A stretch of 25,598 nucleotides of DNA, taken from positions 1 through 25,598 of the IMG/VR virus record IMGVR_UViG_3300037264_008982; one strand, written 5' to 3'. Below, piece after piece: positions 8,256 through 25,598 of this stretch. Below the pieces are notes generated by a model. The model was not told where the DNA came from, made no database searches, and saw only the letters and a list, made by a program, of their open reading frames with translations. Position numbers and translations under genes: made by a program. Each line of letters opens with the position of its first letter. Position 1 is the stretch's first letter. This DNA comes from a virus.

Positions 8256-10448
8256 ATGGCGCAAGGGCTCGAGATGCGGTTGTTCGATGTCATCCGGGTG
8301 AGCCTCCCGGAAGGGGGGAAGTTCTTCTGCGACGGGAAGCTCGTCGCCGAGGACACGACCGACGTCATCCTGCGCAAGATGTCGTCGCCCCAGATCCGGA
8401 CCAAGGCGCGGGCCTCGAGCTCCGGCGTCTTGATCAACGGCCGCGTCTACCCGGGCTCGCGGATGAAGGCGAGCGTCCACCACTTCCTCCAGGATCACGG
8501 GAAGCCGGTCCTCGACCGACACCCCAATCCCAAGGATCGGTACGACGCGCCCACCCGGGTGGGTCGGGTGGTGGCGGCCGAGTACGTGCAGACCGCGGTC
8601 GACGCCCTCTGGCAGAACGACTGGAAGAGCCCGACCCCCAACGGCTCGGCCGGCTCCGGACACATCATGATCGACTCGGTGATCTCCGGACTGGAGAACA
8701 TCGAGCGCGTCCTCGACAAGCGCGACCTCTCCCTGAGCGTCGGCTTCACCCCGCTGGCGTACTACTGCTCGATCTGTGGGGTCGACTGGGTCCAGCACGG
8801 CGGTCCCTGTGGCCACGAGCCGATGAAGGTCTACGAAGTCGAGGACGCCCGGAAGGGTGGGCCCCGGCTCTGCTTCAACATCACCGGGAACCTGCTCTAC
8901 GACCACGTGGCCAACGTGAACTTCCCAGCGGATCCCACTGCCCAGTTCCTCACCGCCGAGTTCCAGGATCACGCCCAAACAAAAACTCTACACTCTTTTC
9001 TCGCCGATGCGTATACTGGGGCCCTCTCCGCGCTCCTGCTGGTCGACGCGGCCAGTCAGCGGACGTTGGAGTTGCAGTTGACGATGCCCGAGTCCCCGAG
9101 TCGCGTCTTCTCCTCGGTTGGTCTTCCCGGTCACGGACAGAAGGAGGCCCGCATGGGTCAGCCCGTTGTAGAGGCCGCAGCCAAGCTCGATGACAAGCTG
9201 ACGGACGCGGGGAGTGTGAAGCCCCCGCCCCCGGCAGCTCAGACGGCACCCGCAGCCAAGCCTCCGACCACCGATCCCAAGCCGGCTGGATCTGCGGCGG
9301 ACTTCGGGTCGGTCGGCAACTGGACGGGCCCGGATCCGGTGGACGGCCACACGCACAGCCTGGCCGCGCTGAACGCCGATGGCAGCGGGCGGACCACGCC
9401 GGGCGGGGCCACGGCGCACGACCACGAGATCAAGAGTGGCCGCGTGCTGCCGTACTCCAACGGGAAGAACGGGGGCGAGGCGTACATGTCCCGGCATCCG
9501 GGCACGTACTACTACGACCAGGCCGGCAAGCCCGCGATCCGGTTCGACGACGCCGCGGCCCCGGTCGGTGAGTCGTGTGAGCCCTGCTACGAGTTCGAGA
9601 AGGACGACAGCCTCAAGAGCGAGTTCACCCCGACCGACGACAAGAAGATCGTCGTCGAGAAGATGGACGCCGACGAGATGGCCGACATGCTCGAGGAGCA
9701 TGAGCTCATCTCGACGGGCAAGCTCAAGACCGACGCGGTCCTGACGGCGGCGGCCCGGAAGAAGATCCCGACCGGCCTGTTCTGCGGTCCCGGCCGCTCG
9801 TTCCCCGTGCACGACAAGGCGCACGTCCGGAACGCGTTGTCCCGGCTGCCCCAGTCCACGCGCTTCTCGCCGGAGCAGAAGGCGCGGATCCTGGCCTGCA
9901 TCAAGCGCCGAGCGAAGCAGCTCGGGGTCGAGGCCGGGAGCGGGGGCGATGAGAAGGCGCTGGGCCAGGCGTTCATGGACGGCCCGTCGCAGGCCATCCT
10001 CAAGACGCTCGGCCAGGACCTCGAGGCCCGGATCGCGCGGATCGGGCAACTCGAAGGCGCGCTGACCGAGCGATCCGATGAGCTCAAGCGGGAGAAGGCG
10101 GCCCACGAGAAGGCCCAGCAGGAGAATCTCAGCCTGCTGCTCGATCGGATCATCGATATGAAGCTGATCCTCGGCAAGCCCGACATGCAGACGGTCAAGG
10201 CCGAGGACGACGTGAAGAAGTTCAAGACCGAGCTCGCGAAGCGTAGCCTCGACTCGCTTCGGGACTCGGCCCGGGATCTGCAACTCGAGCTCACGCGGGG
10301 CGGGAGTGCTGGTGCTCGTCCGAGCCCGGTGCTGGCCAAGCCGGAGAGCGGAGTCGGTGGCCTTGGCGGCGCACCGACAGTCAAGGCGGGCGATCCAGGT
10401 GTGACGCTCGCCGACCTGGCCCTGCGGAAGCTCCGCGGGGAGGCATAG
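8256..10448 (+). CDS. Prohead protease fused to scaffold/core protein
   Basis: The protease part should cleave scaffold and capsid N-termini during head maturation; the scaffold part should shape the procapsid. Residues 50-245 look like a phage prohead protease: GVLINGRVYPGSRM, KPVLDRHP with candidate catalytic H89, GRVVAAEY, and DLSLSVGFTP with candidate nucleophile S159 or S161. A Cys/His cluster follows (C171, C174, C185, H187) and could bind zinc. A Pro/Ala linker spans about 320-347. A His-rich motif (VDGHTHSLAALNADG, then TAHDHEI) lies at 362-391. A small conserved-looking unit, GRSFPVHDKAHVRNALSRL, lies at 513-531. A charged coiled coil spans about 585-680. At 730 residues it is much longer than a protease alone. 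A strong internal ribosome-binding site precedes M300. The major capsid gene lies two genes downstream, as expected. Confidence 0.86.
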   Translation: MAQGLEMRLFDVIRVSLPEGGKFFCDGKLVAEDTTDVILRKMSSPQIRTKARASSSGVLINGRVYPGSRMKASVHHFLQDHGKPVLDRHPNPKDRYDAPTRVGRVVAAEYVQTAVDALWQNDWKSPTPNGSAGSGHIMIDSVISGLENIERVLDKRDLSLSVGFTPLAYYCSICGVDWVQHGGPCGHEPMKVYEVEDARKGGPRLCFNITGNLLYDHVANVNFPADPTAQFLTAEFQDHAQTKTLHSFLADAYTGALSALLLVDAASQRTLELQLTMPESPSRVFSSVGLPGHGQKEARMGQPVVEAAAKLDDKLTDAGSVKPPPPAAQTAPAAKPPTTDPKPAGSAADFGSVGNWTGPDPVDGHTHSLAALNADGSGRTTPGGATAHDHEIKSGRVLPYSNGKNGGEAYMSRHPGTYYYDQAGKPAIRFDDAAAPVGESCEPCYEFEKDDSLKSEFTPTDDKKIVVEKMDADEMADMLEEHELISTGKLKTDAVLTAAARKKIPTGLFCGPGRSFPVHDKAHVRNALSRLPQSTRFSPEQKARILACIKRRAKQLGVEAGSGGDEKALGQAFMDGPSQAILKTLGQDLEARIARIGQLEGALTERSDELKREKAAHEKAQQENLSLLLDRIIDMKLILGKPDMQTVKAEDDVKKFKTELAKRSLDSLRDSARDLQLELTRGGSAGARPSPVLAKPESGVGGLGGAPTVKAGDPGVTLADLALRKLRGEA
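8989..9017 (+). promoter_or_regulatory. Possible promoter upstream of the scaffold-capsid group
   Basis: TATACT at 9012-9017 resembles a sigma70 -10 box and lies just downstream of an A/T-rich patch (8978-9000), unusual in this GC-rich sequence. The -35 region at 17-bp spacing (TACACT) is weak. It sits inside the protease part of the gene, about 130 bp before the internal ribosome-binding site, so it could drive extra transcription of scaffold, decoration and capsid genes. A chance match is possible. Confidence 0.3.
9141..9155 (+). promoter_or_regulatory. Strong internal ribosome-binding site and ATG for a nested scaffold protein
   Basis: AAGGAGG at 9141-9147 is followed, five bases later, by an in-frame ATG at 9153 (codon 300 of the protease-scaffold gene). 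This is one of the best Shine-Dalgarno matches in the window, far better than that of the full-length start at 8256. Initiation here would yield a 431-residue protein lacking the protease domain and starting MGQPVVEAAAKLDDKLTD. That layout matches the known nested scaffold of lambda (Nu3 within C). Use in vivo is inferred. Confidence 0.65.
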
Positions 10449-10478
10449 GCTTCTCGAGCGAAAGGATAAAGGCTACAC

Positions 10479-11267
10479 ATGGCCTTCACTCCGGTTCTCA
10501 AGTCGCTCGCGGAAGTCGCGGTACAGGTCACTCCGTTCCAGGCGCTAACCGAGATCGTGTCACCCCACGAGGAGTTCAAGCCCGCGGGGTACCTCCAGAT
10601 CATCAGGATCGACGGCCAGAACGATGAGCCGTTCGTGATCGAGGGGGGCATGATCGTGGCCATTTCGGCCCGGACCGAGACGCGGTTCGTCAACCGTCTC
10701 GACATCGCCAACGGTGGAGTGGCGCAGACCATCACGTATACGCAATCGGACGTGGATTACGGTGTGGAGGACGTTGCCGTTCCGGGCAGCCTCCGCACCA
10801 CCACGGGTGCGGTTGCGGCTGCGCGTCCGGCCAACATCCCCATCGGGTTTGCGCCGTTCCCCTACTACCGTGGCATCCTCGACGACATCTACATCAACTT
10901 CGAACTGCAGCCGTTCGTGCCGGTCTGGAACCAGGGTTACCTGGAATACCCGATCGTCAAGTCGGCGCAGGACTCCGGCGCGGATGCGCTGGTGCGTGGA
11001 CGCCTCGTGCGTCCGGGTCCCAATGGAGAGTTGCTCTTCTGGGATCCGTCCGCCGACAGCGTCGATCAGATCGTTGGCCGTTGCTGGACCATCAAGACCA
11101 TCGCAGACGATGTCGCGCTGCGGGGCCTTGACAAGGTGCGTACCGTTCCGGGCCTGGCCCTGAGCGGTACCGGCACGGGTGGTGTCCCTGCGTACCTGTA
11201 CAAGGACTTCGAGGGCGGCGGTAAGGCCACCAAGAAGTTCCGGGTGGTCATCGACGCGGCCGTCTAG
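10479..11267 (+). CDS. Probable head decoration/stabilisation protein
   Basis: This 262-residue protein is preceded by AAAGG six bases before ATG. It is rich in beta-type sequence, Gly, Val and aromatic residues, with no enzymatic motif. Segments such as PFVIEGGMIVAISARTETRF (about 51-70) and VDQIVGRCWTIKTI (near 193-206) resemble the small beta-barrel fold of capsid decoration proteins, where an 'all-parameters' loop lists domain edges. Its place between scaffold and major capsid gene matches the usual location of decoration proteins that bind the capsid surface after expansion. Its good ribosome-binding site suggests a high copy number, like the capsid gene next to it. The assignment rests mainly on position; a minor capsid or vertex protein is the main alternative. 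Confidence 0.82.
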   Translation: MAFTPVLKSLAEVAVQVTPFQALTEIVSPHEEFKPAGYLQIIRIDGQNDEPFVIEGGMIVAISARTETRFVNRLDIANGGVAQTITYTQSDVDYGVEDVAVPGSLRTTTGAVAAARPANIPIGFAPFPYYRGILDDIYINFELQPFVPVWNQGYLEYPIVKSAQDSGADALVRGRLVRPGPNGELLFWDPSADSVDQIVGRCWTIKTIADDVALRGLDKVRTVPGLALSGTGTGGVPAYLYKDFEGGGKATKKFRVVIDAAV

Positions 11268-16545: not shown

Positions 16546-17958
16546 ATGCCCCTGAACACGTTGCCGGGCGTCAAGGGCGAAATCAACGATGGTCAGCTGC
16601 GACCACGCTTCGTCCCCCAGCAGCCCAAGATCACGCTGATCGGGACCAGCAACAACCCCGATCTCCCCGTCGGCGAACCGTTCATCATCGAGACCGACGC
16701 CGAGGCCCAGAGCACCTACAACCGCTTCCTGGCCGATGGAATCACGCCCAGCCAGAGCGGGCCGGTACGGAAGCCGTCTGAGCTCACCAAGGCCATCGCC
16801 GAGGCTCGGGGCGGTGGGGCCGAGAACATCGAGGTCGTGGTCCTGCCCGATCCGACGGCCATGGAGTTGCCGCTCGAGATCAACCCGAACAACCTGAAGC
16901 GCTTCCAGGCGCAGGAAGCCCTCTTCCCGCTCTTGAAGGAGACCCAGCTCGACCACGTAATCGCCGTCGGGGCCACGATCGACGCGTCAGGGCTCGGGGC
17001 GACCCAGAACTTCGGGTACCAGCTCGCGAACCTGTGCCACCAGGCGACGATCAACGAGCGGTCGTGCCGGGGGTACATCGGGACCGTCGGACCGGTGGCG
17101 AACGGCTCGACGTCCAAGCCCACGCTCGCTCAGCTCGAGGCGTGGGTGGCGGCGCTCGAGGCGTTCAACACGGCGGCCTTCAACGGGGCCGCGTTCACGA
17201 TCGGCGACGGGGTCACCGACGTCGGGGGCGACGGGGTGCCGGACCTCTACGCCTTCTGGGGCACGCAGAACGAGCTCATTCCGACGGGGTCTCCGCCGCG
17301 GTTCAACGGCCAGGTCGAGATCGACAGCAAGGGCCAGCCGGTCGACATCGGGAAGTACCTCACCGTGTTCGTCGAGCGGGTCCGGTTCTTCAACGAGGTG
17401 GCGCAGGACGTCAACCCGACGCTGAACTTCTACGACGCCAACGGGGTCGTGGCCTACGCCGGGCTCCGTGTGGCTCTCCCGTCGCGGCTTGGGACGACCA
17501 ACCGGGTTCTGCCGGGTGCCGTGCCCATTCGTCCGCTGTCGCCCACCCAGGTCGAGCGGCTGCAGCGGAAGCGCTTCGTGGCGCTGCGGCTGCGGCCCAC
17601 GGGGTACGTGGTCAACAACGGGCTCACCTTCGCCTACCACATCAGCGACTTCTACAAGTCGGACTTCACGCAAGAGACGACGATGATGATCACCCAGGAC
17701 GCCCTGTCGTTCATCCGGACGCGGGCGGTGCAGTACATCGGGGGTCCGAACAACGCACAGGTCAAGGCGGCGATCGAGTCCGACATCGACGACGCCCTCA
17801 AGGTCATGCAGCGCCTCGGGGCGCTGAATCGGTACAACTTCCAGGTCATCATCAGTCCGGCCCAGGCGGTCCTGGGACGGATGCGGATCGAGGTCACGTT
17901 GGTGCCGGCGTTCGAGATCACCCGGATCACGGTGTCGATCTCGCTTGCCCGGGAGTAG
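16546..17958 (+). CDS. Tail sheath protein
   Basis: This subunit forms the contractile sheath that shortens and drives the tube through the host envelope. The 470-residue protein is preceded by TAGGAG and ATG at 16546. The C-terminal 130 residues carry the typical sheath signature: LRPTGYVVNNGLTFAYHISD, then an Ile/Thr-rich segment with TTMMITQDALSFIRTRAVQY, a helix AIESDIDDALKVMQRLGALN, and final strands (GRMRIEVTLVPAFEITRITV) used for sheath interlocking. The N-terminus has PQQPKITLIGTSNNPDLPVG, as in many sheath proteins starting near the tube. The tail tube gene follows directly. This makes the phage a contractile-tailed (myovirus) type. The length is within the usual range. Confidence 0.93.
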   Translation: MPLNTLPGVKGEINDGQLRPRFVPQQPKITLIGTSNNPDLPVGEPFIIETDAEAQSTYNRFLADGITPSQSGPVRKPSELTKAIAEARGGGAENIEVVVLPDPTAMELPLEINPNNLKRFQAQEALFPLLKETQLDHVIAVGATIDASGLGATQNFGYQLANLCHQATINERSCRGYIGTVGPVANGSTSKPTLAQLEAWVAALEAFNTAAFNGAAFTIGDGVTDVGGDGVPDLYAFWGTQNELIPTGSPPRFNGQVEIDSKGQPVDIGKYLTVFVERVRFFNEVAQDVNPTLNFYDANGVVAYAGLRVALPSRLGTTNRVLPGAVPIRPLSPTQVERLQRKRFVALRLRPTGYVVNNGLTFAYHISDFYKSDFTQETTMMITQDALSFIRTRAVQYIGGPNNAQVKAAIESDIDDALKVMQRLGALNRYNFQVIISPAQAVLGRMRIEVTLVPAFEITRITVSISLARE

Positions 17959-17986: not shown

Positions 17987-18667
17987 ATGCCCGCAGCCCA
18001 CGCGAACTTCGCTGAGGAGTTCTCCCGGACCTACAACTCGTTCTCCGGGGTGGACATCCATGCCGTCTTCGGCGGGACGACCATCCTCGAGATCCAGGGC
18101 ATCAGCTACACCGTCTCGCGCGAGAAGGCGCCCATCTACACGATGGGCCGGGCCGACCCGCGCGCGTTCTGCCGGGGTAAGCGGGGGATCGCCGGGACCG
18201 TGATCTTCACGGTCTTCGATCGCCACGCGCTCCTCGAGAACCTGGCGGACCGGGCGATCTTCTGGGCCGACGCCGAAGAGGTGACGGCCATGAACCAGCG
18301 GCTGTCGGCGGGCAACACGTCGATTCAGCCGGCAGGAGCAGGATCGTTCAGCGATCCCAACCGCGTGGGCGTGGCGGTTCCTGCCGTTCCGTGGTACGAG
18401 GACCAGATCCCGCCCTTCAGCATCATCTTGGTCGGCCTCAACGAGTACGGCCACCAGATGAAGATGGAGATCCGTGGCACGGAGATTCTCAATCAAGGGC
18501 AGGGCATCAGCGTGGACGATCTCATGATCGACCAGCAGATGACCTTCGTGTGCACCGACGTCTACCCGTGGCGGGCGGCTCCGTTTGCGCCGCCGTCTCG
18601 GGCGCAGGCCATCCATGAGGTGGTCGCGCCGCCGGTCGCGTCGCCGGTCACGGGTCTGGCCGCCTAG
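17987..18667 (+). CDS. Tail tube protein
   Basis: This is the inner tube subunit inside the sheath, 226 residues, preceded by AGGGAG six bases before ATG. The gene follows the sheath directly, the universal order in contractile phages. Visible features are FSGVDIHAVFGGTTILEIQG near 19-38 (tube-fold beta strands), PIYTMGRADPRAF, GIAGTVIFTVFDRH near 67-80, and the C-terminal block IPPFSIILVGLNEYGH (141-156) and ISVDDLMIDQQMTFV (174-188). These blocks recur, diverged, in the next gene, so the two appear paralogous. The last 30 residues are Ala/Pro-rich and probably flexible. A strong terminator follows the stop. Confidence 0.88.
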   Translation: MPAAHANFAEEFSRTYNSFSGVDIHAVFGGTTILEIQGISYTVSREKAPIYTMGRADPRAFCRGKRGIAGTVIFTVFDRHALLENLADRAIFWADAEEVTAMNQRLSAGNTSIQPAGAGSFSDPNRVGVAVPAVPWYEDQIPPFSIILVGLNEYGHQMKMEIRGTEILNQGQGISVDDLMIDQQMTFVCTDVYPWRAAPFAPPSRAQAIHEVVAPPVASPVTGLAA

Positions 18668-18680: not shown

Positions 18681-18729
18681 GGGTCCGGGGATGAGAGGCT
18701 CCGGCTTCTCTCCCCGGACCCTTGGATTT
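18681..18729 (+). terminator. Strong intrinsic terminator after the tail tube gene
   Basis: GGGTCCGGGGA (18681-18691) pairs perfectly with TCCCCGGACCC (18711-18721). After one bulged T, an inner stem GAGAGGC/GCTTCTC (18693-18699 and 18704-18710, one G-T wobble) continues to a TCCG loop closed by C-G, a stable UNCG-type cap. The stem is followed by TTGGATTT, a modest T-rich tail. This is the best terminator in the window and separates the sheath-tube group from later tail genes. Confidence 0.85.
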
Positions 18730-18733
18730 CCCT

Positions 18734-19666
18734 ATGGCTGACCAAGCGGGTGGACTCCGCGAACGGCGTCTCGTTCCGGACCTTTCCGGGGTGCCGCCCA
18801 GCGTCCGGACGCTGGATCTGCAGCGGGCGTCGCTCGAGCCGCCCCACGAGCAGACCGGCTTCCAGCAGGCCTTTTCCGGCGTCGACTACCGGATCACGGC
18901 GGTCATGCCGTACCACGATCGCCTCAGCACCTCGCCAGCCCAAGGGGAAGGCGAGATTCTCGAGGCCCTGGGGCTGCTCGAGAACCGGATCCTCGGGGAT
19001 CCTACGATGGACCCGGTGCAGCTGGCCGACCTCAAGCAGCAGAAGACGGTCCTTCTCGGTGCTCTGGATGCGACCCGGAGTTCGGGAGGGAAGAAGGGGC
19101 TCCAGCCGTTCTACAAGACGTTCGGCGAGATCCAGACCCTCACAATCACGAGTCGACGCTCCGTCGAACCGGTGCGTCGGCTGGGAGAATCGAGTCCGGC
19201 CGAGTACCTGGGGGGCCCGCGGACCTTCGCGGGGACGATGATCTTCACCCTGCTCCAGGAAGAGCCCCTGCTGGACCTCTACCGGAGCACCGACCGGGAC
19301 CGGTACGATGGGGAACCCTACCTGGTGATGGACCGGTTGCCGCCCTTCAACATCCTGATCACCGGGAGCAACGAGTTCGGCCACTTGGTCGAGTCGGCTC
19401 TCTTCGGGGTGACGCTCGTGGCGGACGGGACGACGCTCTCGATCGACGACCTCTTCACGGAGCAGCAGTACACCTACGTGGCGCGCTCGAAGCTGCCCTT
19501 CACGAAGCGAGCGCGGAACAATAGTCTGCTGGCCATGGTCGGACGGCCCACGCTGCCGGTGGGGCTGGGAGCGATCAGTGAGTTGAATCCCTCCTTCGTG
19601 GTCGGCTCGGTGGCGCGGACGGGGAACACTCTGGGTCGTGGCTTCCCGGTGCGGCGGTCCCGGTGA
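18734..19666 (+). CDS. Tail-tube-like protein with an inserted helical segment
   Basis: ATG at 18734 gives 310 residues. An in-frame TTG at 18722 is possible but lies against the terminator stem. The protein looks like a diverged copy of the tail tube. FSGVDYRITAV (47-57) parallels FSGVDIHAVFG; FAGTMIFTLLQEE (165-177) parallels IAGTVIFTVFDRH; LPPFNILITGSNEFGH (202-217) parallels IPPFSIILVGLNEYGH; and LSIDDLFTEQQYTYV (235-249) parallels ISVDDLMIDQQMTFV. Between the first and second blocks it has about 65 extra residues (62-126), predicted helical (LADLKQQKTVLLGALDATR). The N-terminus and the last 50 residues are also extra. It may be a tube-initiator, tube-end or baseplate-junction protein. 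It overlaps the next gene by 4 bp (GTGA). Confidence 0.83.
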   Translation: MADQAGGLRERRLVPDLSGVPPSVRTLDLQRASLEPPHEQTGFQQAFSGVDYRITAVMPYHDRLSTSPAQGEGEILEALGLLENRILGDPTMDPVQLADLKQQKTVLLGALDATRSSGGKKGLQPFYKTFGEIQTLTITSRRSVEPVRRLGESSPAEYLGGPRTFAGTMIFTLLQEEPLLDLYRSTDRDRYDGEPYLVMDRLPPFNILITGSNEFGHLVESALFGVTLVADGTTLSIDDLFTEQQYTYVARSKLPFTKRARNNSLLAMVGRPTLPVGLGAISELNPSFVVGSVARTGNTLGRGFPVRRSR

Positions 19667-20448: not shown

Positions 20449-20907
20449 ATGAGCGCAGAAGCTGTGCCTGGTCTGGATCCCGGAGCGGTCGAGATGGCGG
20501 ACCCCAAGCCGCCGACGATGGAAGAGCAACTCGCCACGCTGCGAGCCGACATGAAGAAGCGGCTGCAGGAGAAGCACCCCGAGGTCACTGACGCGGTGAT
20601 CGCGGACTGGAAGGCGAAGTTCGGGCGGGTGGCGATCTTCCCGATCTTCGACGAGCTCTACGTCATCCGGCCCCTCTCCCGGAAGGAGTGGAAGGACCTC
20701 AACCGGATGAGCGCCGAAGGACCGGAGAAGAAGGCGCTGAGCCAGGATGAGATGGAGGAGGCGATCGCGGCCCGGGCGACGGTGTTCCCACCCCTCGACC
20801 CTAGCAAGCTGCGGACGAGCAGCTTCGCCGGCATCCCGACGACCATCACCAACTATGTGGAGGTGATCTCGGGTTTCAACCCGTCGATCGGACCCGTCCT
20901 GCTGTGA
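20449..20907 (+). CDS. Probable tail assembly chaperone, first of a tandem pair
   Basis: This 152-residue protein has GAAGGAG seven bases before ATG. It sits after the tube-type genes and before the giant protein, where tail assembly chaperones are encoded in many tailed phages. Its first 50 residues are acidic and Lys-rich. The body has DWKAKFGRVAIFPIFDELYV (53-72), then RPLSRKEWKDLNRM and FPPLDPSKLRTSSFAGIPTT. The same pattern, Trp-Lys, two residues, aromatic-Gly, then (Ser/Thr)-x-x-Glu-Trp, recurs in the next gene, so they look like paralogues. In many phages the two chaperone products are linked by a programmed frameshift; here a TGA, one base and a GTG separate them. The family assignment is by position and pattern. 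Confidence 0.75.
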   Translation: MSAEAVPGLDPGAVEMADPKPPTMEEQLATLRADMKKRLQEKHPEVTDAVIADWKAKFGRVAIFPIFDELYVIRPLSRKEWKDLNRMSAEGPEKKALSQDEMEEAIAARATVFPPLDPSKLRTSSFAGIPTTITNYVEVISGFNPSIGPVLL

Positions 20908-20908
20908 T

Positions 20909-21793
20909 GTGAACCTCGCTACGCTCCCACCCGACGTCGCGGCCAAACTCCCCGTCTGGAAGTCCCAGTACGGGGAGTTGGTTTACATTCCCTACGAGGG
21001 GACGCCATCGGCGTTCCTCTTCCGCTCGATCACGCTGCAGGAGTGGGATCGAATCAAGCTCTGTCTCGACATCAACGATCCGGTCCTGATCGACACGACG
21101 GCGGCCCAGACCATGCAGGCCTGCCTGCTCTGGCCAGAAGGGTTCGATCTCGAAGATCTGAGCATCGGCGACTTCAAGCGTCTCTACGCCAAGCTCACGG
21201 AAGCCTCGCCGTTCGGCAGCATCGACAACTTCCTGTCGGCTCTCGAGCGGTATCGCACGAAGCACCAGGACCTGGTCAACCTGATCCACGCCTTCATCAC
21301 CGCCGCCTTTCCCGGCATGCGTCGGCACGAGATCGCCCAGTTCACCGCCCATGAGGTCTTCCAGCACCTGGTGACCGCCGAGACGATTCTCCAGCGGAAG
21401 TTCGAGATCCAGGGGGCCGGTCCCAGGAAGCCCCCGACGCCCGTGTCTCCGGATGAGGTCCGGGTGCTCCAGGCCCAGAAGGCGATGGAGCGACGGGAAG
21501 TGGCGATTGCCGCCGCGCGCGATCGGCGACGGCGAGCCCTGGAGACCCGGGCGGGCGAACACGCTGCCTCGTTCGGGGCGGCATCGGAGATGGCGCCTCC
21601 GCGTCAAGCCCCGATTCCGATTCCGGCGGCGACGCTGCCTCAATCCTCCCGCGTGGAACGGGTCGGAGCGACGAGTGCGCTCCTGCATCGCTATCCGACC
21701 TCTGAGATCCTGAAGCCGACGGACGATCTGATCGACTACGAGCGGGAGAGGTCGACCATCGACCGCATCCTCCACGAGGACACCGGTGGCTAA
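20909..21793 (+). CDS. Second tail assembly chaperone-like protein with C-terminal extension
   Basis: This 294-residue protein starts at GTG one base after the previous TGA; no other in-frame start is nearer. Residues 1-105 parallel the preceding protein: VWKSQYGELVYIPYEG (16-31), FRSITLQEWDRIK (38-50), CLLWPEGFDLEDLSIGDFKR (72-91). Residues 105-165 are helical (ALERYRTKHQDLVNLIHAFI). Residues 185-225 form a very basic Arg/Ala helix (AAARDRRRRALETRAG), followed by a Pro-rich stretch (about 228-245) and an acidic tail. The extension could hold the tape-measure or giant protein, but this is speculation. The next gene overlaps its end by 8 bp (GTGGCTAA), indicating coupling. It could also be a tail structural protein; the similarity to its neighbour favours a chaperone pair. 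Confidence 0.72.
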   Translation: MNLATLPPDVAAKLPVWKSQYGELVYIPYEGTPSAFLFRSITLQEWDRIKLCLDINDPVLIDTTAAQTMQACLLWPEGFDLEDLSIGDFKRLYAKLTEASPFGSIDNFLSALERYRTKHQDLVNLIHAFITAAFPGMRRHEIAQFTAHEVFQHLVTAETILQRKFEIQGAGPRKPPTPVSPDEVRVLQAQKAMERREVAIAAARDRRRRALETRAGEHAASFGAASEMAPPRQAPIPIPAATLPQSSRVERVGATSALLHRYPTSEILKPTDDLIDYERERSTIDRILHEDTGG

Positions 21794-24700
21794 CTTCCGC
21801 GACGAGTTGCGGGACCGGACCGGAGGGCCGTCGGATGCTGAGCTGCAGAATCCGGTCCAGTACTACCAGCTTCGTCAGCAGCGGGAGTCTGAGCGGCTCG
21901 ACAAGGGTCCGGAGCGGCCGTTCTATGCCCTGGCCACGCTGCTGTTGGCCGGTGTCGGAGGCTGGGCGGCGGTCCGGCACTTCCCCAAGGGGCGACTGGC
22001 AGGTCTGACAGGAGAGATCCGGGACTTCTTCCAGAACCCCGGACGCTTCGGCATCTCCGACAAGGTGCTTCCGAAGCTCCACCGGGCGCTCGACTCGGTC
22101 ACGGATGTGGTGGCACAGCAGCCTTGGGCCCACGTGCACAAGGACAACTTCGGGCAGTTCCTGGGGAGCAGCCGAGCCGCGACGGATCCCGAGGTCAATC
22201 GAGCCCTCCGGATCCTGGCCGACGTCGCGGAGAAGAACCCGGACAACTTCGGGCACGTCCTCTCAGCACAACGGACGGCGGCGACCAAGTACCTCCGGCC
22301 GATCCCCCAGGACACATCCGGCCTCCGGAGCCTGACGCTCGGCGATCTGTTCAACCCCACAGGTGGCTGGAAGACCGAGACCTTCGGCACCATGCCGGAG
22401 AACTTCCAGAACCTCCACCGCACGATCCAACGGTTCGCTTCGATTCCAGGGATCCGGGGGTCGAGTGCCGACCTGCTCCACCAGGTGCAGGTGGATTCGG
22501 GCGTCTACCTGCGTCGGTCGTCGGCCGGGGCAGTGGACCTGGTCAACCTCCGCCACCTCTCGCCGTCGCAGTGGATTCGACGCATCGGGGAGAAGGCCTC
22601 GGCCGCCCGCATGTTGCCGATGCGGGAGCAGCTCCGCACCGGCGCGGTCGGGGCTCGGCTCGCGGACTGGGCGATGCAGCTCATGGTGCCCACCGAGCTG
22701 TTCAGCCCGGGTCCGGGTCTGGCCCATGTCGGTCCCGAGGCCATTCGTGCGGCCCTTCCTGGGGTGGCCCGTCACGAGGTGGCTGGTGGGGTCTATCTCG
22801 GGGGCCAGGTCTTGCCGCTCTACCGTGGGGGATTGCTCGGCCAGCCCCTTGAGGGTCGCTACATCCTGGGGCGTCAGACCTCGGCGATGGGAGCGGCCGG
22901 GCGGATGCGGTTCCGAGAGATGGGCGAGCGCCGGGCGATGGAGCGGGCGGCGCACGGACCTCTGTCGACAAGTCCGGTTGGGCGAACGGCGAAGTACCTA
23001 GCCGACCACAAGATCGATCCCCAGTCGTTCCGGGGCCTCGCGGTGCGGTTCGGCGATGTCCTGGGTCTCGGCCCGCAGTTCTCGGTGGAAGAGGGGCTGC
23101 AGCAAGCCCAGGCACGCGCGAAGGCCCAAGGACTCGATTGGGCGGAGTCGGCGCTCGAGAACCCGGAATCTCTGCCCAAGCGGATCTGGCAGTGGACGAC
23201 CTCTCCGAACCCCATCGGGAAGATGCGGGAGGCACTCAAGACTGCGGCGAATGCGATCCCCGGCCGAAAGCATCTCGAGGGGCAGTACTTCGTTGCGCGA
23301 CCCGGACAAGCGGTCTCGGACTGGGGGAACTACCTCGTCGGACGTGTGGGGCGGCTCCTCGAGGAGACTACCCGGAACGTCACGGGGACCGCGGTCGGGA
23401 TTCGTCCTGGCCTGACCCCGCTGGGCTCGCTGGGACGGTGGGTGGGGGTCGGAGCTGCCGCGTGGGCCGGGTTCAAGGGGCTCCAGTACGTCGACTACCA
23501 CACGCGGAACTTGATCGGGACCGGGCCGCTGACGTTGCCGGTCCAGGCTTACACCCAGCTCCGCGTGGCCCAGCAGGCCGCGTTTGCCGGTCTCGGGATC
23601 CAGCAGTCAGCCGACTACCTCGAGAACCTGGCGCCGGGGCTGGTCAACAGCCCACTCTCTCGCGTGGCACGAGCAGCGGCCGTGACCCGGATGGCCTCGG
23701 GGATCGCGCCCTTCGGAGGCACGTTCGGGGCGGGGCTGGCGAGTCGGATCAACCTGCCCGGTCGGTTCGGACGGCTGGGGACGGCCGCGGCGGTCGGGTT
23801 GGGCCTGACCCAGCTCACCGACATCGGCCAGTCTCCGGCGAACCTGGCCGCGGTCTATCGAGGTGACGTCGATGTGCCAGTGCGCGAGGCCCGGTGGTGG
23901 GCCATGGGGACCCAGCCCTACACCGGGGGCCGGATTCTCTACACCCGGCCGCACCTGATCGCGAGCTACCTCAGTCGGGCCGAGACGATCGGGCGGTACG
24001 GATCGGAAGCCGAAGCCTGGAAGAACTCCCTCTTCCCGACCGTGGAGAGTTGGGGTGGACTCCGGCCGCTTCTCGATCCGTACCGGGTCGAACGTCAGAA
24101 CTACCTGAAGCGGCCCTATCCACTCACGGCGCCGATGTTCGAGGAGGTGCCGTTCGTCGGCCCGGCGTTGGCCGCCACGGTCGGGGCGCTGATCAAGCCG
24201 GTCCAGCGGTGGCATGGAGCCTACTGGCAGGGGAACCAACTCCAGGAAGGGTATCCCCAGCTCGCTCCGGCGGGGGCAGCCGAGGCGTTGGGGTATCCGA
24301 GTCTGTCGGGTCTGCCTCGGCGGACGGCGGGAGACCCCACACGTCCGATCGAGGTCCTGGGGAAGCAGATCGACGTCATCCGGGACTTCCTCGGGATGCC
24401 GGGCTTCCTGCTCGGGGCGATCAAGAAGCAGTTCACCGGGGAAGACGACTTCAACGTCGCCAACCGCCAGATCGCCACGGCAGGCCGGATCACCTCGGCC
24501 GAGCGGCAGTACTACGACTGGCAGCTGGGCGGCCTGATGGGCACGACCGAGCTCTTCCGGCGGTTCTTGCCGCATCGGAAGCGTCAGGTCGAACTGGTCA
24601 ACCCGATTCCGAACCTCGCCCCGAACTGGTTGCCGGGCAGCTTCTCGGCCTTCGCGCAAGATCGTCCGGCCCGCGTCGATCTCCACCGTGGGGATCCCTA

Positions 24701-25598
24701 CGCGACGATTCCCCAGGGGGAGCTCCGGCTCCCCGGACTGGGGTACGAGGCGCTCCACCGGCTGCACTCCGGGATTCCGGGAGTCTACGACGCCTACGAC
24801 CGCTGGAAGATCCTGCGGGACGTGGCTCCCACAAGCCAGGCGTTCCGGCACTACGACGCCATCGTGCGAGGCTGGGCGGCCGGATCCGCGATCTCGAATC
24901 GGTCGGGTGGCAAGTGGATGGAGGACAGCTACGGACGCCTTCGGGGTGTCGTCCGAGCTGCGGTCGATGGCGACACGATCACGGTCGACGTCAACGGGCG
25001 CTTGGTCAACGTCCGCATCGCCGGAGGAAATACGCCCGAGGTGGCGCACACCCGGTTCGAAGCGAGCTTCCCAGAATCCCTTGCTGGAGCGATCGCTAAA
25101 CAGCGGCTCGAGAACCACGCGATTGGTCGGTCCGTAGAGATCGCCGTCACGGGGATCAACCCGGGAGACACGAAGTACGGTCAGCGACTCGTCGGGCGAG
25201 TGGTCACGGGTGGGTGGGGTGGACGAGATGTCTCGGCCGAGTTGGAAGCGGCGTACCCGGCCTACAACCTGACTCCGGGACAACAGGCACGGGTTTGGAG
25301 CACCCGACGGGATCTCGAGCGCCGGTTCCAACCGTACCCCTTCACCGAGCGCATCTTCCAGGATCCTACGGCCCAGGTCCCTCGGAACATGCGGGACCTT
25401 ACGACGCGTTCGATCACGGGAATCAACACGGCGATCAAGCAACAGGGCGAGTTCACGCTCCCGGAGAAGCTCATCGGTCGAGCCTGGGAGTCGGTCTCGC
25501 ACCTCACGTTGCCGGGGCCGCTCAACTGGCCGGTCAACAAGCTCTTCGCGCAACGGGATCCGCTCGAGGTCTACCGGATGCAGACCCAGGGCGGCCTC
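21786..25598 (+). CDS. Giant virion protein with an embedded staphylococcal-nuclease-like domain (3' truncated)
   Basis: The frame starts at GTG 21786, overlapping the previous stop by 8 bp, and stays open to the end of the window: 1271 codons with no stop. Hydrophobic segments lie at 46-64 (FYALATLLLAGVGGWAAVR), about 545-567 and about 661-680. Long Gly/Arg-rich and Pro-rich stretches alternate between them. Residues about 1050-1165 resemble a staphylococcal nuclease (SNase) fold: VRAAVDGDTITVDVNGR (D1061, D1063), VRIAGGNTPEVAH (R1077, N1082, E1085) and KYGQRLVGRVV (1130-1140). In the classic enzyme the corresponding positions are Asp (VDTPE) and Arg (YGR), so two key positions look changed. 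After chaperones one expects a tape measure; this could be that, or a virion-ejected protein. It is not a typical coiled-coil tape measure. Confidence 0.85.
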   Translation, partial: MANFRDELRDRTGGPSDAELQNPVQYYQLRQQRESERLDKGPERPFYALATLLLAGVGGWAAVRHFPKGRLAGLTGEIRDFFQNPGRFGISDKVLPKLHRALDSVTDVVAQQPWAHVHKDNFGQFLGSSRAATDPEVNRALRILADVAEKNPDNFGHVLSAQRTAATKYLRPIPQDTSGLRSLTLGDLFNPTGGWKTETFGTMPENFQNLHRTIQRFASIPGIRGSSADLLHQVQVDSGVYLRRSSAGAVDLVNLRHLSPSQWIRRIGEKASAARMLPMREQLRTGAVGARLADWAMQLMVPTELFSPGPGLAHVGPEAIRAALPGVARHEVAGGVYLGGQVLPLYRGGLLGQPLEGRYILGRQTSAMGAAGRMRFREMGERRAMERAAHGPLSTSPVGRTAKYLADHKIDPQSFRGLAVRFGDVLGLGPQFSVEEGLQQAQARAKAQGLDWAESALENPESLPKRIWQWTTSPNPIGKMREALKTAANAIPGRKHLEGQYFVARPGQAVSDWGNYLVGRVGRLLEETTRNVTGTAVGIRPGLTPLGSLGRWVGVGAAAWAGFKGLQYVDYHTRNLIGTGPLTLPVQAYTQLRVAQQAAFAGLGIQQSADYLENLAPGLVNSPLSRVARAAAVTRMASGIAPFGGTFGAGLASRINLPGRFGRLGTAAAVGLGLTQLTDIGQSPANLAAVYRGDVDVPVREARWWAMGTQPYTGGRILYTRPHLIASYLSRAETIGRYGSEAEAWKNSLFPTVESWGGLRPLLDPYRVERQNYLKRPYPLTAPMFEEVPFVGPALAATVGALIKPVQRWHGAYWQGNQLQEGYPQLAPAGAAEALGYPSLSGLPRRTAGDPTRPIEVLGKQIDVIRDFLGMPGFLLGAIKKQFTGEDDFNVANRQIATAGRITSAERQYYDWQLGGLMGTTELFRRFLPHRKRQVELVNPIPNLAPNWLPGSFSAFAQDRPARVDLHRGDPYATIPQGELRLPGLGYEALHRLHSGIPGVYDAYDRWKILRDVAPTSQAFRHYDAIVRGWAAGSAISNRSGGKWMEDSYGRLRGVVRAAVDGDTITVDVNGRLVNVRIAGGNTPEVAHTRFEASFPESLAGAIAKQRLENHAIGRSVEIAVTGINPGDTKYGQRLVGRVVTGGWGGRDVSAELEAAYPAYNLTPGQQARVWSTRRDLERRFQPYPFTERIFQDPTAQVPRNMRDLTTRSITGINTAIKQQGEFTLPEKLIGRAWESVSHLTLPGPLNWPVNKLFAQRDPLEVYRMQTQGGL

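What the first reader, a model, noticed from the sequence alone, without database searches (positions are those of the whole stretch)
24931..25280. Nuclease domain with altered catalytic positions inside a giant phage protein
The segment matches the SNase order: DGDT, VRI, (D)TPE and YGR. Retained are D1061, D1063, R1077 and E1085. The usual Asp of the VDTPE motif is N1082, and the usual Arg of YGR is Q1133 with Arg in the next position (R1134). Such changes often weaken or abolish cleavage, so the domain may bind nucleic acid or calcium, or act structurally, inside a virion protein. A nuclease or DNA-binding unit embedded in a tail-length protein could act on host DNA at entry or guide phage DNA.
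Basis: partly seen in the sequence, partly recalled or inferred. Interest (0 to 1): 0.6.

Follow-up and report, generated by a model that had tools for sequence, protein, structure and literature searches.

The report
SNase-fold domain in phage tail protein
A large tail protein of an uncultured contractile-tailed phage carries a real staphylococcal-nuclease-like domain whose catalytic residues look mostly intact, in a protein family whose other members either lack the domain or keep a clearly degenerate copy at what looks like a different spot.

Summary
The domain is real. Window 24930-25265 (aa 1049-1160 of ORF 21786-25598) scores 35-40 bits against a profile of 158 SNases (best of 1000 shuffles 5.2), and its AlphaFold model matches staphylococcal nuclease and Tudor-SN. 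Pfam PF00565 itself does not report it.

The 'altered catalytic positions' largely dissolve. Asn at the Asp40 place occurs in 68 of 158 SNases, 67 of them with D21, R35 and R87 and a full E43 or near it. The best alignment treats Q1133 as a one-residue insertion and puts R1134 in the Arg87 column (posterior about 0.9).

The host protein is not shown to be a tape measure; it resembles the large virion protein encoded before the tape-measure gene in the Bacillus phage 0305phi8-36 lineage. Of 58 metagenomic relatives about 37 carry an SNase fold stripped of its motifs, others none; a few carry a PD-(D/E)XK nuclease. Intact SNases sit in the hub or other structural-region genes of several relatives; one hub SNase was published in 2007. 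The window's SNase looks like a separate insertion (moderate support). Activity and target are untested.

The parts
21786..25598 (+). large virion-protein ORF (1271 aa, 3' end cut off by the window), homologue of ME3_35 and MTATph1_CDS0026 (0305phi8-36 gp145-like)
24930..25265 (+). SNase-fold domain, aa 1049-1160 (profile match runs to about aa 1169)
   Evidence: profile 35-40 bits; AF2 model pLDDT 72.3; Foldseek E 1.6e-4 and VIA Z 10-11 to SNase/Tudor-SN; phrog_452 endonuclease E 0.012
24966..24977 (+). DGDT motif, D1061 G D1063 T1064 (D21 equivalent is D1063)
25014..25016 (+). R1077, equivalent of SNase Arg35
25029..25040 (+). NTPE: N1082 (Asp40 place), T1083, P1084, E1085 (Glu43 equivalent)
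25176..25187 (+). YGQR: Y1131 G1132 Q1133 R1134; R1134 in the Arg87 column with Q1133 as a one-residue insertion
24495..24875 (+). conserved core block before the SNase (WLPG...RGDPYATIP.GE.RLPG...KILRDVAP)
   Evidence: A2/A3 alignments and 58 IMG/VR relatives
25266..25478 (+). linker after the SNase; matches the linker of SNase-less relatives and the pre-SNase linker of others (z about 3-5)
20449..21793 (+). two ORFs in the tail assembly chaperone position before the large ORF (first one only weakly XkdN-like, Phage_TAC_5 E 0.21)
16546..17958 (+). tail sheath protein (contractile-tail phage)
   Evidence: phrog_16991 E 4.5e-43

Best explanation
The segment is a staphylococcal-nuclease-fold domain inserted into the gp145-like large tail/virion protein of a phage of the 0305phi8-36 lineage. 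It keeps a plausible complete catalytic set (D1063, R1077, N1082, T1083, E1085, R1134) and most likely works as a virion-borne, calcium-dependent, sequence-nonspecific nuclease. The virion would carry it as built-in cargo and expose it at or after adsorption, where it could cut nucleic acid at the cell envelope, in the surrounding matrix, or in the entered cell. Shown: fold similarity, motif content, host-protein family, presence or absence in relatives. Inferred: virion location (by homology to annotated structural proteins), metal use, catalysis, target. The domain was probably acquired separately from the old degenerate SNase of this protein family.
For: Profile match of 35-40 bits with D21, R35, E43 and R87 equivalents aligned. 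AF2 model matches SNase and Tudor-SN at Foldseek E 1.6e-4 to 2e-4 and VIA Z 10-11. N at the D40 place in 68 of 158 SNases, 67 of which keep D21, R35, E43 and R87. R1134 has posterior about 0.9 in the Arg87 column, and that register puts G1137 and V1139 on the buried A90/I92 positions, where the gapless one would bury R1138 (plus inference). The profile of the degenerate SNases of this protein family scores the window at only 0.3 bits. With the SNase left out, the ORF aligns end to end with SNase-less relatives L010, L011, L015 and L016, and the linker after the SNase matches relatives' linkers (z about 3-5). Intact SNases recur in other structural-region genes of the lineage: hub ORFs of ME3, MTATph1, KLEB27-3 and L033, and a 1393-aa protein upstream of terminase in the L018 contig. 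PMC2147016 reports one in the BtI1 hub.
Against: None of the 158 SNases has an insertion at the YG-R step; only the ME3 hub has a longer loop there. Pfam PF00565 does not report the domain at all. Model confidence around the NTPE loop is low (pLDDT 53-61), and the model's alignment contained one intact hub SNase. Most relatives of this protein keep a degenerate SNase or none, so nuclease activity is not a conserved need of the protein. No close relative of the window was found, so selection on the active site could not be tested. No virion or activity data exist for this phage.
Confidence: 0.55

Rival explanations
1. The domain is a pseudo-nuclease: it folds like SNase but cuts little or nothing, and serves as a nucleic-acid-binding or structural module in the tail.
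For: About 37 of the 58 IMG/VR relatives, plus MTATph1 and KLEB27-3, keep an SNase fold without the DGDT and TPE motifs in the same protein; a model of that segment from these sequences alone matches SNase at Foldseek E 1.5e-5, TM 0.74. The one-residue insertion before R1134 may misplace it.
Against: The window copy keeps DGDT, R35, TPE and an Arg in the Arg87 column, unlike the degenerate copies, and lies far from them in profile score. N at position 40 is ordinary.
Confidence: 0.33
2. The window's SNase is the old family SNase, retained with its motifs while other lineages decayed, not a separate insertion (compatible with either the active or the inactive reading).
For: Same general stretch of the protein (between the KILADVAP block and R.PLE.Y); in the core tree the window pairs weakly (support 0.45) with L013/L018, which have the old degenerate SNase.
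Against: The linker that precedes the old SNase in relatives follows the SNase in the window (z 2.8-3.3 against L048 and L054, up to 5.3 against SNase-less L014); the degenerate-family profile gives 0.3 bits. The insertion-site evidence is moderate: a helix-motif HMM gave no significant hit.
Confidence: 0.3
3. Chance resemblance; no SNase fold.
For: Weak single-sequence hits only (PDB phmmer E 0.03; PHROG E 0.012) and no Pfam hit.
Against: 35-40 bit profile match against a shuffle maximum of 5.2, and a structure match in which the top hits are SNase and SND1.
Confidence: 0.02

Closest known systems
Staphylococcal nuclease family (Pfam PF00565; thermonuclease)
   Same: Predicted fold, order DGDT - R35 - (D/N)TPE - YG-R, and equivalents of D21, R35, T41, E43 and R87
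   Different: N at the D40 place (common), one extra residue before the R87 equivalent (not seen in 158 homologues), embedded in a large phage structural protein, below Pfam detection
SNase domain in the baseplate hub of the 0305phi8-36 lineage (BtI1 hub, PMC2147016; ME3_37, MTATph1_CDS0032, KLEB27-3 gp035)
   Same: SNase fused to a large tail protein in the same phage lineage, catalytic residues mostly kept
   Different: A different host protein: the window's is in the gp145-like protein, two genes upstream of the hub
Degenerate SNase-fold segment of the gp145-like protein (MTATph1, KLEB27-3, about 37 IMG/VR contigs)
   Same: Same host protein and same general region
   Different: Catalytic motifs lost, apparently different insertion point, almost no profile similarity to the window's domain
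Human Tudor-SN (SND1) SN-like domains
   Same: Close structural match (3bdl, 7knx)
   Different: Eukaryotic multi-SN protein; no relation of context

Membership tests
SNase (PF00565) superfamily | SNase (OB-type) fold | tested here: met
   AF2 model, Foldseek E 1.6e-4 with TMq about 0.6, VIA Z 10-11 over about 100 residues
SNase (PF00565) superfamily | profile similarity to SNases | tested here: met
   35-40 bits against a 158-sequence profile built here
Pfam PF00565 as curated | reaches Pfam's curated cut-off for PF00565 | tested here: not met
   no PF00565 hit at E up to 10; described here as SNase fold, not as a Pfam-recognised PF00565 member
SNase (PF00565) superfamily | catalytic D21, R35, E43 | tested here: met
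   D1063, R1077, E1085 in the profile alignment
SNase (PF00565) superfamily | D40 (calcium ligand) | tested here: inconclusive
   N1082; N also in 68 of 158 SNases (viral set 48 N / 31 D, genome set 19 N / 58 D), though all three query sequences had N there
SNase (PF00565) superfamily | R87 | tested here: inconclusive
   R1134 aligned there with posterior about 0.9 after a one-residue insertion; no coordinates to confirm the side-chain place
SNase (PF00565) superfamily | Ca2+-dependent nuclease activity | not testable with these tools
   needs an assay
gp145-like virion protein of the 0305phi8-36 lineage | sequence homology to an annotated member | tested here: met
   ME3_35, E 8e-20, and MTATph1_CDS0026, E 3e-23; ME3_35 carries a note of homology to 0305phi8-36 YP_001429636
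gp145-like virion protein of the 0305phi8-36 lineage | gene order sheath - tube - chaperone position - this gene - next large gene - hub | tested here: inconclusive
   upstream order is as in the relatives; downstream genes lie off the window
Tape measure protein | length sets tail length | not testable with these tools
   PMC2147016 assigns the tape measure to orf146, the next gene, mainly from length

The most novel reading that the evidence does not exclude
The gp145-like virion protein of this phage lineage is a recurrent landing site for nuclease domains (an old SNase that decayed, a newer apparently intact SNase in the window, a PD-(D/E)XK nuclease in other relatives), and these phages carry working nuclease cargo in their tails.
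Probability: 0.4. Interest if true: 0.65.

Novelty: new variant of a known kind. Interest (0 to 1): 0.45.

Why it matters
If active, it is a nuclease built into a phage tail protein, which makes testable whether such phages use virion-borne nucleases against extracellular DNA, the host chromosome or rival DNA. The family also offers a natural series of SNase copies, from none through degenerate to apparently intact, in one structural protein.

Tried and rejected
Direct searches with the SNase domain and with the whole ORF in viral and genome contigs found no relative, nor did a search with the capsid protein, so selection on the active site could not be measured. PF00565 search of the window and Pfam scan: nothing. 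tblastn of the domain alone against phages: only chance-level hits, the ME3 hub among them at E 4. MAFFT alignments of whole proteins misaligned the SNase region, so trimmed segments were used. An HMM of the pre-SNase helix and motif gave no significant hit in the window; the insertion-site claim therefore rests on pairwise z-scores only. The window's first ORFs against the SNase-bearing protein upstream of terminase in the L018 contig: not clearly above shuffles. GC3 of the SNase stretch is somewhat low (0.74 against 0.83 for the whole ORF), but other stretches of the gene reach 0.78, so this is no firm sign of recent import. 0305phi8-36 itself is not in the collections. Paper searches for SNase in tape measure or virion proteins found only PMC2147016 as relevant.

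Full report
The observation. ORF 21786-25598 (+) is open to the window end. The single-sequence signals are weak: no Pfam family even at E 10, phrog_452 (endonuclease) at E 0.012 over aa 1055-1166, and PDB thermonucleases at E 0.03. A profile built from 158 SNases fetched from viral and bacterial contigs raises this to 35-40 bits. The best of 1000 shuffles reaches 5.2 bits, and no other of 205 stop-to-stop frames in the window exceeds 2.3 bits. An AlphaFold model of aa 1049-1168 (pLDDT 72.3) has the SNase order of strands and helices; its best PDB matches are staphylococcal nuclease and Tudor-SN (Foldseek E 1.6e-4 and 2.0e-4; VIA Z 10-11). The SNase reading is therefore sound.

The catalytic positions. 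In the profile alignment D1061/D1063/T1064 fall on DGDT, R1077 on R35, N1082 on D40, and T1083/P1084/E1085 on TPE. Among the 158 homologues the D40 place is D in 90 and N in 68, and 67 of the N sequences keep D21, R35, E43 and R87. The sample is biased, because all three query sequences had N, but N is also found in 19 of 77 scored bacterial-contig sequences. N1082 is thus no sign of inactivity. At YGQR the profile inserts Q1133 and matches R1134 to Arg87, with posterior about 0.9; MAFFT with nine SNases does the same. The gapless reading would put R1138 on the buried I92 position, whereas the gapped reading puts G1137 and V1139 on A90 and I92 (inference from the SNase fold). The model starts a strand at R1134 (residue 86 of the model). 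No homologue of the 158 has an insertion at that step, so whether R1134 reaches the phosphate remains open.

The host protein. It matches ME3_35, MTATph1_CDS0026 and KLEB27-3 gp031/gp033, and the portal finds the same three phages. In ME3 this gene is annotated as homologous to 0305phi8-36 YP_001429636 and lies two genes before the hub. PMC2147016 places the tape measure at orf146 and the hub at orf147, so the window protein is most likely gp145-like, a virion protein upstream of the assigned tape measure. The window has the sheath, tube-like genes and the chaperone-position ORFs in the matching order.

The relatives. A search with the conserved core found 58 IMG/VR contigs. After the KILADVAP block they have either a short linker or an SNase-like segment in which DGDT and TPE are lost. 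A model of that segment built only from these sequences (pLDDT 86.3) matches staphylococcal nuclease at Foldseek E 1.5e-5, TM 0.74. It is thus a widespread degenerate SNase fold. The window's domain does not resemble it (0.3 bits). With its SNase left out the window ORF aligns with SNase-less L010, L011, L015 and L016, and the linker after the window's SNase resembles the linker before the old SNase (z 2.8-3.3) and the linker of SNase-less relatives (z up to 5.3). This points to a separate insertion, with moderate support; an HMM test was negative and the core tree is weakly resolved near the window.

Other nuclease domains in the lineage. SNases with the catalytic residues lie in the hub ORFs of ME3, MTATph1, KLEB27-3 (Q at the D40 place) and L033, and in a 1393-aa protein upstream of terminase in the L018 contig. 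Several relatives of the gp145-like protein carry a PD-(D/E)XK nuclease insertion (L055, L060: phrog_1706 E 1.3e-16 and 5.4e-17; PF12705 E 1.4e-4 in L060).

Mechanism. The best-supported reading is a virion-borne SNase with a plausible complete active site. That it would be calcium-dependent and nonspecific follows from established knowledge of the SNase family, not from data here. Target and moment of action are unknown; because SNases need calcium at levels found outside cells, action at the envelope or on matrix DNA is somewhat more natural than action in the cytoplasm (inference). The main rival is a pseudo-nuclease, which is what many relatives carry.

Known and new. SNase fused to a tail protein of this lineage was described in 2007 for the BtI1 hub (PMC2147016). 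New here, as far as the searched papers go, are its presence in the gp145-like protein, the widespread degenerate SNase in that protein, and the correction of the 'altered residues' reading.

Noticed in passing
L055, L056, L057, L060 (from about 10235 to 10885); eroded in L053, L064, L065: PD-(D/E)XK (Cas4/RecE-like) nuclease inserted in the gp145-like protein just before the DR.KILADVAP block; phrog_1706 E 1.3e-16 (L055) and 5.4e-17 (L060).
   Followed up: partly
L086:3570-7751 (-), contig of L018: 1393-aa protein upstream of terminase with an intact SNase (PF00565 E 5.5e-12): a third structural-region location of SNase in this lineage.
   Followed up: partly
L001:15285-19214; L003:16271-23575; L002:14469-19280; L089:59-4723: The gene after the gp145-like one (the assigned tape measure position) has a DnaQ-like exonuclease in MTATph1 (phrog_192 E 5.3e-11) and DxDxD motifs like RNA polymerase beta' in KLEB27-3 (KADYDGDF), L011 (ADFDSDKM) and ME3 (GGDHDQDQ); possibly a virion RNA polymerase rather than a tape measure. 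PF00623 only E 0.015.
   Followed up: partly
L003:13117-14150: In KLEB27-3 the gp145-like gene is split by an insertion with a 211-aa ORF (gp032) inside the conserved core block; looks like an intron with a homing endonuclease.
   Followed up: no
L066:6068-10288: The gp145-like ORF of L066 stops inside the same core block; intron or frameshift.
   Followed up: no
window 17987-18667 and 18722-19666: Two neighbouring, apparently paralogous ORFs, both matching phrog_9206 ('major head protein'), in tail tube position; KLEB27-3 annotates genes in this position as tail tube.
   Followed up: no
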